Assembly: GCA_019187365.1 (NCBI GenBank)
Contig: JABARE010000003.1
Coordinates: 1-64,000, forward strand
From: Saprospiraceae bacterium
GTDB lineage: Bacteria; Bacteroidota; Bacteroidia; Chitinophagales; Saprospiraceae
DNA length: 64,000 bases
Direction: 5' to 3'
Of the stretch, positions 1 through 10,213 are shown piece by piece (position 1 is the stretch's first letter; every line of letters begins with the position of its first letter). The position numbers were made by a program, and so were the translations under genes. The notes beneath the pieces are model-generated. The model was not told the DNA's origin and did not search any database. It saw only the letters and a program-made list of their open reading frames with translations.

Positions 1-3000
1 GTTTTGAATTGCTTTCAATTTTAAAGAAGTATCTTTGAACAACTACCCTTTTCGGTGCCGTCGTGCGCGATACTCGGTTTTGAATTGCTTTCAATTTTAA
101 AGAAGTATCTTTGAACAACTACCTAAGTTAGTTAAAACCGGTGGCGTTTGGAGTTTTGAATTGCTTTCAATTTTAAAGAAGTATCTTTGAACAACTACAA
201 AACTTTTAAAAACAAAAATATGATACAAGTTTTGAATTGCTTTCAATTTTAAAGAAGTATCTTTGAACAACTACGCCCATGTATGCGCTGATACTGGATA
301 GTCTGTTTTGAATTGCTTTCAATTTTAAAGAAGTATCTTTGAACAACTACGGAGGGCAGCGCCGAAGATCAGAAGCGCATGTTTTGAATTGCTTTCAATT
401 TTAAAGAAGTATCTTTGAACAACTACAAATTGATGGGTTTCCCGCCTGGCTGGACAGTTTTGAATTGCTTTCAATTTTAAAGAAGTATCTTTGAACAACT
501 ACTTTGCTGTTGCACTTCGGCTCGTTTAGCATGTTTTGAATTGCTTTCAATTTTAAAGAAGTATCTTTGAACAACTACATGATTACAAATGCAGAAAAGA
601 TACAGCATGTTTTGAATTGCTTTCAATTTTAAAGAAGTATCTTTGAACAACTACGACACTTCGCCAACGGTAATGAGCCGCAATGTTTTGAATTGCTTTC
701 AATTTTAAAGAAGTATCTTTGAACAACTACAAAACTTTTAAAAACAAAAATATGATACAAGTTTTGAATTGCTTTCAATTTTAAAGAAGTATCTTTGAAC
801 AACTACTAAAAAACGTGCACCCGGAGTTGAAATTGTGTTTTGAATTGCTTTCAATTTTAAAGAAGTATCTTTGAACAACTACCAGGGTTTCGGAAGTATG
901 CCTTGCCCTGGTGTTTTGAATTGCTTTCAATTTTAAAGAAGTATCTTTGAACAACTACCTGAAGTCTTCTGACGATCATACCTTTTTGGTTTTGAATTGC
1001 TTTCAATTTTAAAGAAGTATCTTTGAACAACTACCGGCTGGCGCTCCCAACGTTAGCCGGGTTTGTTTTGAATTGCTTTCAATTTTAAAGAAGTATCTTT
1101 GAACAACTACTGGCGATTTCAATAGCCGTTTTTAATCCAAGTTTTGAATTGCTTTCAATTTTAAAGAAGTATCTTTGAACAACTACATGCCAACCTTAAC
1201 CTAAAGGCATTGCGCAGTTTTGAATTGCTTTCAATTTTAAAGAAGTATCTTTGAACAACTACTGGGGCTAACCTGCGGCATGATAGCGTATTGTTTTGAA
1301 TTGCTTTCAATTTTAAAGAAGTATCTTTGAACAACTACACCATGGTGTTTATAATTTTTATGTGGTCTGTTTTGAATTGCTTTCAATTTTAAAGAAGTAT
1401 CTTTGAACAACTACTCAGTTTAACACGAAATTGAAAGGTACACAGTTTTGAATTGCTTTCAATTTTAAAGAAGTATCTTTGAACAACTACCTAAACGACA
1501 GCAGCGCGACGAATGAGCTGGTTTTGAATTGCTTTCAATTTTAAAGAAGTATCTTTGAACAACTACCGGCTGGCGCTCCCAACGTTGGCCGGGTTTGTTT
1601 TGAATTGCTTTCAATTTTAAAGAAGTATCTTTGAACAACTACCGGACCTGTATCGCTAAAACAGTACACAATGTTTTGAATTGCTTTCAATTTTAAAGAA
1701 GTATCTTTGAACAACTACCAATCAGAGGTTGATGGGAGCGTAACAAACGTTTTGAATTGCTTTCAATTTTAAAGAAGTATCTTTGAACAACTACTAAAAT
1801 CCAGTGCGGGGATTGTGCGAACAAGTTTTGAATTGCTTTCAATTTTAAAGAAGTATCTTTGAACAACTACCCCGCATTCGCAACTTCTGTTCCCAATTCC
1901 TGTTTTGAATTGCTTTCAATTTTAAAGAAGTATCTTTGAACAACTACGATCCTATTGCAGACGCTGCTTGTTTATAAGTTTTGAATTGCTTTCAATTTTA
2001 AAGAAGTATCTTTGAACAACTACCCGATTACTTCCGTCACGATTGACGGGGTGGTTTTGAATTGCTTTCAATTTTAAAGAAGTATCTTTGAACAACTACA
2101 AGCCCTGTTGCGAGTGCCAGCATCGCACGGTTTTGAATTGCTTTCAATTTTAAAGAAGTATCTTTGAACAACTACGAACTTGCAAGCGATGCGGTGACGT
2201 TTGCAGTTTTGAATTGCTTTCAATTTTAAAGAAGTATCTTTGAACAACTACCTGGCCTGTCTCACAAACAACAATAAAATGGTTTTGAATTGCTTTCAAT
2301 TTTAAAGAAGTATCTTTGAACAACTACTACTCATGCTGTGTATTGATGTTGAACTCAGTTTTGAATTGCTTTCAATTTTAAAGAAGTATCTTTGAACAAC
2401 TACGTGAAGAATTCGGTAAAGAGATTGCCGAAGGTTTTGAATTGCTTTCAATTTTAAAGAAGTATCTTTGAACAACTACAAATCCATGCATCTCCTTTTC
2501 CCATTTCTAGTTTTGAATTGCTTTCAATTTTAAAGAAGTATCTTTGAACAACTACCAAATGCGTGTGGCAAGTCCGTTTATGAGTGTTTTGAATTGCTTT
2601 CAATTTTAAAGAAGTATCTTTGAACAACTACCCGGGCGGAACATTCGGTTCAAATGGGCTTGTTTTGAATTGCTTTCAATTTTAAAGAAGTATCTTTGAA
2701 CAACTACGCACATGAATCTGGTAGTTATACGGGTACGGTTTTGAATTGCTTTCAATTTTAAAGAAGTATCTTTGAACAACTACGCGCGCCTGCGTCGCCG
2801 GGCGTCTCGTTTAGTTTTGAATTGCTTTCAATTTTAAAGAAGTATCTTTGAACAACTACTGTGTGTCCGGATGGGCTGCGCAACGACGTGGTTTTGAATT
2901 GCTTTCAATTTTAAAGAAGTATCTTTGAACAACTACGATTATTCAGCGACAACGGAAGTATGTTGCGTTTTGAATTGCTTTCAATTTTAAAGAAGTATCT

Positions 3001-5444
3001 TTGAACAACTACTTAAAAAAATTTGAGAACAAATAAAAATTAGTTTTGAATTGCTTTCAATTTTAAAGAAGTATCTTTGAACAACTACGTTGACCGATAC
3101 TCAACGACAACTTGCTTTGTTTTGAATTGCTTTCAATTTTAAAGAAGTATCTTTGAACAACTACTATTATACCGAATTGTTCCGCTCCCGCGCGGTTTTG
3201 AATTGCTTTCAATTTTAAAGAAGTATCTTTGAACAACTACGTTCCGTTTGTGCTTCAGATGACAGACCTTGTTTTGAATTGCTTTCAATTTTAAAGAAGT
3301 ATCTTTGAACAACTACCTTGCGTGGATTGGATGAATTGCATCTTTAGTTTTGAATTGCTTTCAATTTTAAAGAAGTATCTTTGAACAACTACCGGTCATT
3401 GGGTTGTGAAACATTCACGAAGGTTTTGAATTGCTTTCAATTTTAAAGAAGTATCTTTGAACAACTACTCGGTAATGGACGACAATAAGATTGCTGATGT
3501 TTTGAATTGCTTTCAATTTTAAAGAAGTATCTTTGAACAACTACGAAGCAATACGAACAAATTGCGGAACTGAAGTTTTGAATTGCTTTCAATTTTAAAG
3601 AAGTATCTTTGAACAACTACCCTCACGTATGCGCAGCACCTTATCAGGCGGTTTTGAATTGCTTTCAATTTTAAAGAAGTATCTTTGAACAACTACTTTA
3701 AAAGAAATATGGTGTTACAAGGACACGTTTTGAATTGCTTTCAATTTTAAAGAAGTATCTTTGAACAACTACCTCTGCTCCAATACCCTGCGCAATACCA
3801 GGGTTTTGAATTGCTTTCAATTTTAAAGAAGTATCTTTGAACAACTACCCGCCGCCATTTATTAGCTGTCTCAGCTGCGTTTTGAATTGCTTTCAATTTT
3901 AAAGAAGTATCTTTGAACAACTACTTAGGTGGTTGCGCGAAACTTGGCCCGTCGGTTTTGAATTGCTTTCAATTTTAAAGAAGTATCTTTGAACAACTAC
4001 CTACCGGCGTTCCATCCCAATCGGTTAATGGTTTTGAATTGCTTTCAATTTTAAAGAAGTATCTTTGAACAACTACAAGCCCGGCAACAATTGCTCCCCT
4101 TACAGCGTTTTGAATTGCTTTCAATTTTAAAGAAGTATCTTTGAACAACTACTTCTTTTTTCCCGTACTTTTACCGCCATACGTTTTGAATTGCTTTCAA
4201 TTTTAAAGAAGTATCTTTGAACAACTACAAAAGGGGCCGAGGATGGACGGCCCCTCACGTTTTGAATTGCTTTCAATTTTAAAGAAGTATCTTTGAACAA
4301 CTACGTCCTCCGCGATTAAGATATACGCCGGTCGGTTTTGAATTGCTTTCAATTTTAAAGAAGTATCTTTGAACAACTACTTTCCTCAACACCGCCTGAT
4401 AGCTCGTCGCGTTTTGAATTGCTTTCAATTTTAAAGAAGTATCTTTGAACAACTACTTATGAGAGTAGTCAACGTAAACGACTTAGTTTTGAATTGCTTT
4501 CAATTTTAAAGAAGTATCTTTGAACAACTACCAGAGCGGCGGGGACAGTACGCGGGCGTTAGTTTTGAATTGCTTTCAATTTTAAAGAAGTATCTTTGAA
4601 CAACTACATTGATAAGCCGTTACCGACAACGATTTCCGTTTTGAATTGCTTTCAATTTTAAAGAAGTATCTTTGAACAACTACAAAAGAGCCAGAATAAC
4701 CTACCAGGCTCTTGTTTTGAATTGCTTTCAATTTTAAAGAAGTATCTTTGAACAACTACTTATGAGAGTAGTCAACGTAAACGACTTAGGTTTTGAATTG
4801 CTTTCAATTTTAAAGAAGTATCTTTGAACAACTACGCGGCAAGAGGTCTCGGATAATGGCCATCCGTTTTGAATTGCTTTCAATTTTAAAGAAGTATCTT
4901 TGAACAACTACGCGCAATGCGTATTCATTGACATATTTCTGGGTTTTGAATTGCTTTCAATTTTAAAGAAGTATCTTTGAACAACTACACTGTTAAGCAA
5001 GCTTGTTTCGTTGGGCGTGTTTTGAATTGCTTTCAATTTTAAAGAAGTATCTTTGAACAACTACCAGGCTCAGGGTCCGGAACACAAATCGGAAGTTTTG
5101 AATTGCTTTCAATTTTAAAGAAGTATCTTTGAACAACTACCATATTGGCAATACCATATCGTGTGCCTTTGTTTTGAATTGCTTTCAATTTTAAAGAAGT
5201 ATCTTTGAACAACTACGAATTACCGCGTGGATATAATCCCCAAATTGTTTTGAATTGCTTTCAATTTTAAAGAAGTATCTTTGAACAACTACCATTCGCT
5301 CCATATTATGTATAGCGCAAACGTTTTGAATTGCTTTCAATTTTAAAGAAGTATCTTTGAACAACTACTGAACGGGGGTAACAGCACGCAGGCGTACAGT
5401 TTTGAATTGCTTTCAATTTTAAAGAAGTATCTTTGAACAACTAC
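1..5444 (+). CRISPR. Type II-C CRISPR array, 72 intact repeats
   Basis: Seventy-two copies of a 46-bp repeat (first bases GTTTTGAATTGCTTTCAA, last bases TATCTTTGAACAACTAC) alternate with 71 spacers. The spacers are 30 bp except 1871-1901, 2860-2890 and 4912-4942 (31) and 4457-4485 (29). The repeats look identical by eye. Position 1 is already the first base of a repeat, so the array very probably continues to the left. Polarity is set by the tracrRNA at 10033-10108, whose anti-repeat pairs with repeat bases 1-18, so crRNAs read left to right as spacer followed by repeat. Repeat bases 30-37 form TATCTTTG, a Bacteroidota -7 box, with a TTG at bases 9-11 (18-bp gap), so each repeat may carry its own promoter. 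Two spacers occur twice (199-228 and 731-760; 4457-4485 and 4760-4788), and one pair differs by one base (1035-1064 and 1567-1596). Confidence 0.99.
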
Positions 5445-5474
5445 AGGACCTCTGCAACGTATTGACTGACAAGC

Positions 5475-5505
5475 GATTAAGACTTGCTTTGCCTGTAAAA
5501 TCAAG
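5475..5505 (+). repeat. Degenerate terminal CRISPR repeat
   Basis: This segment begins exactly 76 bp after the start of the last intact repeat (5399), leaving a perfect 30-bp spacer at 5445-5474. About 20 of the first 29 repeat positions match when two one-base insertions are allowed, including the block CTTGCTTT. Similarity ends before the TATCTTTG promoter-like box, so this unit has the crRNA handle but no promoter. A degenerate last repeat is the usual mark of the trailer (oldest) end of an array, which puts the leader to the left, outside the window. Confidence 0.75.
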
Positions 5506-5523
5506 CCTGTGAGAAGGCTTGAT
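5500..5523 (-). terminator. Hairpin downstream of cas2
   Basis: ATCAAGCC (5500-5507) and GGCTTGAT (5516-5523) form an 8-bp stem with an 8-base loop. Read on the minus strand the stem is followed by TTTTA, so it fits a Rho-independent terminator for the cas9-cas1-cas2 transcript, 20 bp past the cas2 stop codon. It overlaps the degenerate repeat. Confidence 0.6.
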
Positions 5524-5543
5524 GTCGGCTGTTTCAGAGGTTT

Positions 5544-5891: not shown

Positions 5892-6801
5892 ATTCAGGAA
5901 AGATAAGGTGACTGGCTGATCCGGTCTCAAAACACTTGGCCAGACCGGCACAGACTGCATGGACAGCCACCTGCAGGGGTTTGCGATCGCCTTCCAGGCG
6001 CACATCGCGGTTCAGCAGGGTCAGGCATTCAGCGCGGAGCTCACGGCTGAGCTCACCTTCTTGAAATTCGGACGGATTGCGCAATCCTATTTCTTTGACC
6101 CAATCGTCTGCATACGGCCGGAAAGGCTCCATAACGTCGTCTGCCAGGCAAAAGCTGTTGAATTGGTTTTTGTGGTGGATCCCCATGAAGGGAAAAAGAC
6201 CGGAGCCCACCAAAGCCCTTGCTACCATAGCGCGCAAAACTGCATAACAGTAGTTGAGCGCCGGATTGGGGCAGTCGCCGTATCGGTCCCTCCGGAAGTC
6301 CGGATACTCGCTGAACAGTTTCCGCCAATAGTAAGCCGCTGCGCGGGCCTCGAGGTTTCCCGCATCGCCCGACCGGACTTTGCCGCAAGCTTCCAGAAGA
6401 GGCTTGTAAGGCTTCCTGAACTTTTTGAGCACAAATGCCTGGTTGCGGATCTTTGCTGCAACGGTGAGCTGCCAAAGCCTCTTTTTCAAGGGCTTGCCAG
6501 CTTCCATCTGTGCCCTCATCCGGCCTCCTCCCAGCGCGTTCCCCTCAAAAGGCACCATCAGACCTGCGGGGTGGTGTTTATCGTCGCAAACGACCATACA
6601 CACCTTGTTCTGGATGCAGGCGCGCAAAAGCGGCACGCTGAGCAGGATCTGCGCATGGTCGAGCATCAGCAAGCCTGCGTCCTCAAGCGGCCGGGTGTGT
6701 TCCTGCTTTTCTCCTTCATTTCCCGAAAATTCGACGACCATCTGGTTTAGCCGGCTGCTCAGACGGGCCGGATTTTCCACGTAGTAAGTTTTCGCGATCA
6801 T
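5884..6801 (-). CDS. cas1: CRISPR-associated endonuclease Cas1 (type II)
   Basis: The 305-residue Cas1 is the integrase that inserts new spacers. Visible hallmarks are the catalytic glutamate in NLEARAAAYYWRKLF (E151), the GIHH motif (H209/H210) and the acidic cluster LADDVMEPFRPY (about 219-230) that complete the metal site. The sequence is of the type II lineage (GLLMLDHAQILLS and PFEGNALGGGR segments). It starts 24 bp after the cas9 stop and overlaps cas2 by 8 bp, so the three genes form one unit. Length is normal and the catalytic residues are intact, so adaptation should be functional. This agrees with the long array. Confidence 0.97.
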   Translation of the reverse strand: MIAKTYYVENPARLSSRLNQMVVEFSGNEGEKQEHTRPLEDAGLLMLDHAQILLSVPLLRACIQNKVCMVVCDDKHHPAGLMVPFEGNALGGGRMRAQMEAGKPLKKRLWQLTVAAKIRNQAFVLKKFRKPYKPLLEACGKVRSGDAGNLEARAAAYYWRKLFSEYPDFRRDRYGDCPNPALNYCYAVLRAMVARALVGSGLFPFMGIHHKNQFNSFCLADDVMEPFRPYADDWVKEIGLRNPSEFQEGELSRELRAECLTLLNRDVRLEGDRKPLQVAVHAVCAGLAKCFETGSASHLIFPEYE

Positions 6802-10032: not shown

Positions 10033-10108
10033 TTGAAAGCAATTCAGAATAAAGAATTATTCTGCAGGCTTTTAGCCTTGCCCCACTTCGGTAGGGGCAT
10101 TTTTTTTT
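10033..10108 (+). ncRNA. tracrRNA
   Basis: Bases 10033-10050 can pair without interruption with CRISPR repeat bases 1-18 (18 bp, of which two are G-U wobbles); the 14-base core TTGAAAGCAATTCA is exactly complementary. The tail holds a small stem at about 10064-10081 and ends in a strong terminator. With the predicted start near 10035 the RNA would be only about 74 nt, shorter than most known tracrRNAs. An alternative 8-bp hairpin, CAGAATAA (10045-10052) with TTATTCTG (10057-10064), would compete with the end of the crRNA duplex. The exact 5' end is inferred from the promoter, not observed. Confidence 0.88.
10080..10108 (+). terminator. tracrRNA Rho-independent terminator
   Basis: GCCCC (10080-10084) pairs with GGGGC (10094-10098). 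An inner AC/GT pair closes a UUCG tetraloop, and nine T follow (10100-10108). Confidence 0.92.
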
Positions 10109-10213
10109 GCCCGTGCCAGCTGCGTCTTTAAGTATCTTAAAGGTGAAACAGCGATTGCGTGAGTGCGTATCTGCTGCTCATGAATGGTTTACAAATAAAG
10201 TAAATAATTAATG

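What the first reader, a model, noticed from the sequence alone, without database searches (positions are those of the whole stretch)
1..5444. Each CRISPR repeat contains a promoter-like sequence that would start crRNAs at the spacer
Seen: repeat bases 30-37 read TATCTTTG, the exact Bacteroidota -7 form TAnnTTTG, with TTG at bases 9-11, an 18-bp gap inside the normal 17-23. The -7 box ends 9 bases before the spacer, so transcripts would begin at the last bases of the repeat or the first base of the spacer. Known: in Neisseria and Campylobacter II-C arrays, promoters embedded in repeats make RNase III dispensable. Inference: this system may have 72 tandem promoters, and the unusual 46-bp repeat length would be explained by 28 bases for the tracrRNA duplex side plus a promoter.
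Basis: partly seen in the sequence, partly recalled or inferred. Interest (0 to 1): 0.8.

Follow-up and report, generated by a model that had tools for sequence, protein, structure and literature searches.

The report
Promoter boxes inside CRISPR repeats
Every repeat of this bacterial CRISPR-Cas9 array carries the start signal that this group of bacteria uses for its genes, so each immune guide RNA is probably started separately just before its spacer; this is known from Neisseria and Campylobacter, but here it is written in the promoter language of the Bacteroidota.

Summary
All 72 repeats are identical and read TTG (nt 9-11), 18 nt, TATCTTTG (nt 30-37). The array continues on a second contig, to about 86 repeats. 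It is a type II-C locus (array, cas2, cas1, cas9, tracrRNA) in Saprospiraceae-like Bacteroidota. The crRNA strand runs from a degenerate first repeat towards the leader beside cas2. No Bacteroidota -7 box lies in the 400 nt upstream of the array.

In 106 Bacteroidota Cas9 arrays (56 repeat clusters), exact TAnnTTTG occurs in 17 clusters against 1.7 expected. TTG stands 17-23 nt upstream in 32 of 35 clusters with the core. The same box precedes tracrRNA: it is the top motif found de novo upstream of anti-repeats, and here it is TTG-N19-TAACTTTG. An embedded promoter is therefore the best reading (0.78). The predicted start is repeat nt 42, five bases before the spacer.

Not supported: promoter as the cause of repeat length (36-nt repeats carry the same box), and dispensable RNase III in Campylobacter. 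Cautions: TCTTTGA is more conserved than the promoter consensus predicts, several families lack TA, and terminal-repeat retention is confounded by recombination. No RNA data exist here. New variant of a known kind.

The parts
1..5444 (+). II-C CRISPR array, 72 identical 46-nt repeats and 71 spacers; continues to the left on contig C3 (16 repeats, two overlapping)
9..11 (+). -33-like TTG of repeat 1 (same offset in all 72 repeats)
   Evidence: 18 nt before the -7 box
30..37 (+). -7 box TATCTTTG of repeat 1 (same offset in all 72 repeats); predicted +1 at repeat nt 42
   Evidence: box position -12 to -5 from PMC9723704
5428..5435 (+). -7 box of the last repeat (5399-5444); it would fire into the leader, antisense to cas2
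   Evidence: sequence
5445..5543 (+). leader-like region between the array and the 3' end of cas2, with inverted repeat TCAAGCC..GGCTTGA
   Evidence: position as in Riemerella and F. columnare II-C (PMC6008519, PMC8092290)
5544..5891 (-). cas2
   Evidence: Cas2_II, TIGR01573
5884..6801 (-). cas1, type II
   Evidence: TIGR03639
6826..9993 (-). cas9, 1055 aa
   Evidence: TIGR01865, 523 bits
10001..10030 (+). tracrRNA promoter TTG-N19-TAACTTTG
10035..10112 (+). predicted tracrRNA: anti-repeat GAAAGCAATTCAGAAT (16 nt, pairs with repeat nt 1-16), tail, terminator from 10076 on
   Evidence: 5' end inferred from the box

Best explanation
This is a type II-C CRISPR-Cas9 locus whose repeats each contain a promoter of the Bacteroidota housekeeping sigma factor (TTG, 17-23 nt, TAnnTTTG). 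RNA polymerase starts at about nt 42 of each repeat and reads the last five repeat bases, the spacer and the next repeat, whose first 16-18 nt pair with tracrRNA. The crRNA 5' end is thus set mainly by transcription, and only the 3' side needs tracrRNA-dependent cutting. The array is read from its oldest repeat towards the leader beside cas2. tracrRNA is started by the same kind of promoter directly at the anti-repeat. Shown: the sequence, the direction by anti-repeat, and the enrichment of the motif in repeats and before tracrRNA. Inferred: that the box is active, the exact start, and the 3' processing.
For: Exact box in all copies. 56 repeat clusters: exact TAnnTTTG in 17 against a shuffle mean of 1.7 (maximum 6); TAnnTT in 38 against 17.4. 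TTG at a gap of 17-23 in 32 of 35 clusters, 13 of them at exactly 19. Congeners L049 and L050 keep the first ~17 nt and TATCTTTG while the rest, including lengths on both sides, changed. Nearest pairs: box positions differ in 13%, flanks in 35% (p 3e-6). Genome G000 uses the motif: TTG-N19-TAnnTTTG 78 against 42 for the reversed control. tracrRNA: box just upstream of 40 of 98 candidate anti-repeats against 2.1 expected, and top motif de novo. No box within 400 nt upstream of the array in G000 or G005. Degenerate first repeats keep the box: nt 1-17 mutated 34%, box 0/192 (confounded, see against).
Against: No RNA data for this organism. De novo, TCTTTG(A) is the strongest motif in repeats (25 clusters), and TTTGA is kept in clusters that lack TAnnTT (GATCTTTG, TTTCTTTG), so the element may have another or an additional role. 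The nn bases are not freer than the box. 36-nt Flavobacterium repeats lack the box although their genomes use it. -33 TTG is kept in only 10 of 24 degenerate first repeats. Families with and without the box differ only weakly in genome-wide motif use (p 0.02). The intact 3' half of first repeats can also come from recombination between repeats: G000 and G005 share the ACG scar but have species-specific 3' halves.
Confidence: 0.78

Rival explanations
1. The box is conserved because Cas1-Cas2 or Cas9/tracrRNA reads the repeat there (weak palindrome CTTTCAA..TTTGAA, or extension of the tracrRNA duplex); its likeness to a promoter is secondary. The array is transcribed otherwise.
For: TCTTTG(A) is the most enriched motif in repeats, and TTTGA survives without TAnnTT in 11 of 56 clusters. 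In some relatives the anti-repeat pairs up to the TA of the box (L115).
Against: Own stem pairing is no better than with swapped partners (3.77 against 3.88 of 6). 24 clusters keep TAnnTT without TTTGA. The window's duplex ends at nt 16-18, about 12 nt before the box. The motif is the tracrRNA promoter motif.
Confidence: 0.13
2. One long precursor by read-through from the upstream same-strand gene (beta-lactamase-family protein, 38 nt before the first repeat), cut by RNase III.
For: The upstream gene on the same strand ends 38 nt before the first repeat.
Against: No promoter box within 400 nt upstream. It would leave the enrichment of the box in repeats unexplained. Read-through may add to repeat promoters.
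Confidence: 0.07
3. Chance: an AT-rich repeat that happens to contain TAnnTTTG.
For: 7.5% of shuffles of this repeat contain the box.
Against: 17 clusters against 1.7 expected, maximum 6 in 500 shuffle sets.
Confidence: 0.02

Closest known systems
Repeat-embedded crRNA promoters of Campylobacter jejuni and Neisseria II-C systems (PMC3656092, PMC4607530)
   Same: Each repeat starts the transcript of the spacer after it; array convergent with the cas genes; oldest repeat at the 5' end.
   Different: There the -10 box (gnTAnaaT) is flush with the 3' end of a 36-nt repeat and the start lies in the spacer. Here the box is TAnnTTTG, 9 nt inside a 46-nt repeat, and the predicted start is in the repeat.
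Flavobacterium columnare and F. psychrophilum II-C arrays (PMC8092290, PMC10309648)
   Same: Same phylum and array direction; a repeat-encoded promoter was proposed from TTG and low-resolution RNA-seq.
   Different: F. columnare has 36-nt repeats, and 36-nt Flavobacterium repeats seen here lack the TAnnTTTG box; only the -33-like TTG was named.
Riemerella anatipestifer CRISPR1 (PMC5006608, PMC6008519)
   Same: 47-nt repeats, 16-nt anti-repeat, cas9-cas1-cas2, acquisition at the cas2 end.
   Different: The authors found no promoter in the repeats and placed promoters in the leader, with a predictor not made for the Bacteroidota consensus.
Mutated extra repeats of II-C arrays (PMC12080349)
   Same: First repeat mutated mainly in the first 15 nt; the authors suggest promoter retention.
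   Different: Explained there as suppression of extraneous crRNA. Here the intact part contains the -7 box, but recombination is a further explanation.

Membership tests
Type II-C CRISPR-Cas | cas9, cas1 and cas2 only, no csn2 or cas4 beside them | tested here: met
   the next ORFs have no defence-family match
Type II-C CRISPR-Cas | tracrRNA with anti-repeat and terminator | tested here: met
   10035-10112
Type II-C CRISPR-Cas | crRNA strand convergent with the cas genes, degenerate repeat at the 5' end | tested here: met
Type II-C CRISPR-Cas | Cas9 in the II-C clade by phylogeny | not tested
   TIGR01865 match only; no tree built
Repeat-embedded crRNA promoter | promoter sequence of the host's own type in each repeat at a fixed distance from the spacer | tested here: met
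Repeat-embedded crRNA promoter | primary transcripts start at each repeat/spacer border | not testable with these tools
   needs 5'-end mapping
Repeat-embedded crRNA promoter | no leader promoter upstream of the array | tested here: met
   no TAnnTTTG or near variant in 400 nt upstream
Bacteroidota sigma-A promoter | TAnnTTTG with TTG 17-23 nt upstream | tested here: met
Processing-independent (RNase III-free) crRNA of Neisseria | RNase III dispensable for interference | not testable with these tools
   needs an rnc mutant

The most novel reading that the evidence does not exclude
Repeat-embedded promoters of the phylum's own sigma type are the general way in which Bacteroidota II-C arrays are expressed, with box type and position evolving with the host's promoters; in the common 47-nt repeats starts would lie about 12 nt inside the repeat, so these crRNAs would at first carry a repeat-derived 5' tag not known from other Cas9 guides.
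Probability: 0.4. Interest if true: 0.6.

Novelty: new variant of a known kind. Interest (0 to 1): 0.48.

Why it matters
Long-repeat II-C systems are common in Bacteroidota, and where their crRNAs start is not mapped in the papers held here; one group even concluded that the repeats hold no promoter (PMC5006608). A defined -7 box predicts each start to the base, explains how arrays whose leader lies downstream can be transcribed, and tells which repeat bases must not be changed when such arrays are built for editing. The box can be tested in one reporter experiment.

Tried and rejected
Within-array repeat variants as a selection test: only 32 variant sites, many from one noisy array (L106), so not informative; taken at face value the box positions were not depleted of variants. 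Sigma-70 control pattern across genomes: not enriched in any class and probably dominated by coding bias, not informative. Spacer first-base bias by class: none. cas9 promoter inside the complement of the anti-repeat: seen in three congeners, not general (5 of 58 against 3.5 expected). Stem covariation: none. The one genome-contig scan gave one close relative only.

Full report
Observation. The window is the start of contig C10 of a 3.66-Mb draft genome. Positions 1-5444 hold 72 identical 46-nt repeats; each has TATCTTTG at nt 30-37 and TTG at nt 9-11, 18 nt apart, and also TTG at 4-6, 23 nt apart. The array runs off the contig. Contig C3 ends in 16 copies, the last two overlapping window repeats 1-2, so the array has about 86 repeats. 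The first copy on C3 is a terminal repeat with ACG for GTT and everything else intact; it begins 38 nt after a same-strand gene for a beta-lactamase-family protein.

Locus and direction. cas2, cas1 and cas9 (1055 aa) follow on the minus strand, and no further defence-family gene was found among the next ORFs. On the plus strand, beyond the start of cas9, lies the tracrRNA gene: anti-repeat GAAAGCAATTCAGAAT, tail, terminator. The anti-repeat pairs with repeat nt 1-16, so the crRNA strand is plus and the array is read from the degenerate repeat towards the leader-like region at 5445-5543. This is the II-C arrangement described for F. columnare (PMC8092290) and C. jejuni (PMC4607530). A leader promoter at the acquisition end cannot transcribe this array in the crRNA direction, and the 400 nt upstream of the first repeat hold no TAnnTTTG or near variant, here or in the relative G005. 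The nearest named relative is a Saprospiraceae MAG, with 93% Cas9 identity.

Chance. In dinucleotide-preserving shuffles of the repeat, 0.63% contain TTG-N17-23-TAnnTTTG. This is suggestive but post hoc, so relatives were surveyed.

Survey. Cas9 loci were collected from Bacteroidota genomes, giving 106 oriented arrays, 44 families and 56 clusters at 80% identity. Exact TAnnTTTG occurs in 17 clusters (shuffle mean 1.7, maximum 6), and a match at five or six of the six positions in 34 of 40 long-repeat clusters (mean 15.1, maximum 23). In the 35 clusters with an internal TAnnTT, TTG lies 17-23 nt upstream in 32, most often at exactly 19 nt; in the common repeats it is supplied by the GTTG at the repeat start. 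The window lineage differs: the box lies about 6 nt further downstream, its repeat starts GTTTTG, and TTG 9-11 takes the place. Two congeners (L049, L050) keep the first ~17 nt and TATCTTTG, while the bases between and after have changed in sequence and length.

tracrRNA. The same box precedes the anti-repeat in 40 of 98 candidates against 2.1 expected; TAnnTTTG is the top motif found de novo in these upstream regions. In the window it is TTG-N19-TAACTTTG. This shows, independently of the repeats, that the motif stands where a promoter is needed in these loci. Genome-wide, TTG-N19-TAnnTTTG is about twofold enriched in many families with the box, 78 against 42 in G000.

Start site. In F. psychrophilum the sigma-A box spans -12 to -5 (PMC9723704). 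Applied here, +1 is repeat nt 42, so transcripts begin ACTAC plus spacer. In the common 47-nt repeats, with the box at nt 23-24, the start would fall about 12 nt inside the repeat; in 36-nt repeats with the same box, 1-2 nt before the spacer.

First repeats. Of 78 resolvable 5' ends, 47 are degenerate, 42 with more changes in the 5' half and 4 in the 3' half. In box-bearing arrays nt 1-17 changed in 34% of positions, the box in none of 192. Mutation of the first 15 nt is known for II-C (PMC12080349). I do not count it as proof: G000 and G005 share the same ACG scar but each has its own species' 3' half, so recombination with inner repeats probably renews the 3' half, which would give the same picture without selection.

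Against. De novo, TCTTTG and CTTTGA are the strongest motifs in repeats, and TTTGA is kept in 11 clusters without TAnnTT; the repeats prefer TATCTTTG where tracrRNA promoters prefer TATATTTG. Something besides the promoter, or common descent, constrains this element. A stem with the CTTTCAA side is not supported by swapped-partner pairing. Flavobacterium 36-nt repeats lack the box. The -33 element is often lost in degenerate first repeats. Internal variants were too few or noisy to test selection.

Literature. Repeat promoters in II-C are established for C. jejuni (PMC3656092, PMC4607530) and Neisseria, and proposed for two Flavobacterium species (PMC8092290, PMC10309648). For R. anatipestifer, with 47-nt repeats, none was found (PMC5006608). 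In the papers that my searches returned and I read, none names TAnnTTTG in repeats; most subscription papers are not held. Campylobacter still needs RNase III for one step (PMC3656092).

Verdict. Embedded promoter, confidence 0.78; new variant of a known kind; interest 0.48.

Noticed in passing
L047:4497-4542 and L050 (reverse strand) 6598-6641: Two species share the same ACG scar at the start of the first repeat and the same flanking gene, yet each first repeat has its own species' 3' half and no spacer is shared: a sign that recombination between repeats renews the old end of arrays.
   Followed up: partly
window:10014-10042 (minus strand): Possible cas9 promoter TTG-N18-TATTTTGC whose TTG lies inside the complement of the anti-repeat; also in congeners L049 and L050 (gap 18 in all), but not general.
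   Followed up: partly
L061 array: Within one array older repeats read TATCTTCG or TATCTTAG and newer ones TATCTTTA: the last two box positions change while TAnnTT stays.
   Followed up: no
L122, L140, L147: Three related 36-nt repeats read TAATTTTG, TAGATTTG and TAGTTTTG: within the box only the free nn bases differ.
   Followed up: no
L119-L136 (36-nt repeats): A second repeat class ends in TACATT, TAGATT or GATATT flush with the spacer, like Neisseria; the last six bases fit [TG]AnnTT, with the final TG of the box falling in the spacer. Families f42, f44 and f49 with this class show little or no genome-wide TAnnTTTG enrichment.
   Followed up: partly
L156, L163, L197, L198, L100: tracrRNA -7 boxes read TACATTCG or TATCTTCG, and the two f108 repeats carry GAGATTCG: possible lineage-specific shift of the promoter consensus to TAnnTTCG.
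   Followed up: no
window:199-228 and 731-760; 4457-4485 and 4760-4789; 1035-1064 and 1567-1596: Duplicated or near-duplicated spacers within the array.
   Followed up: no
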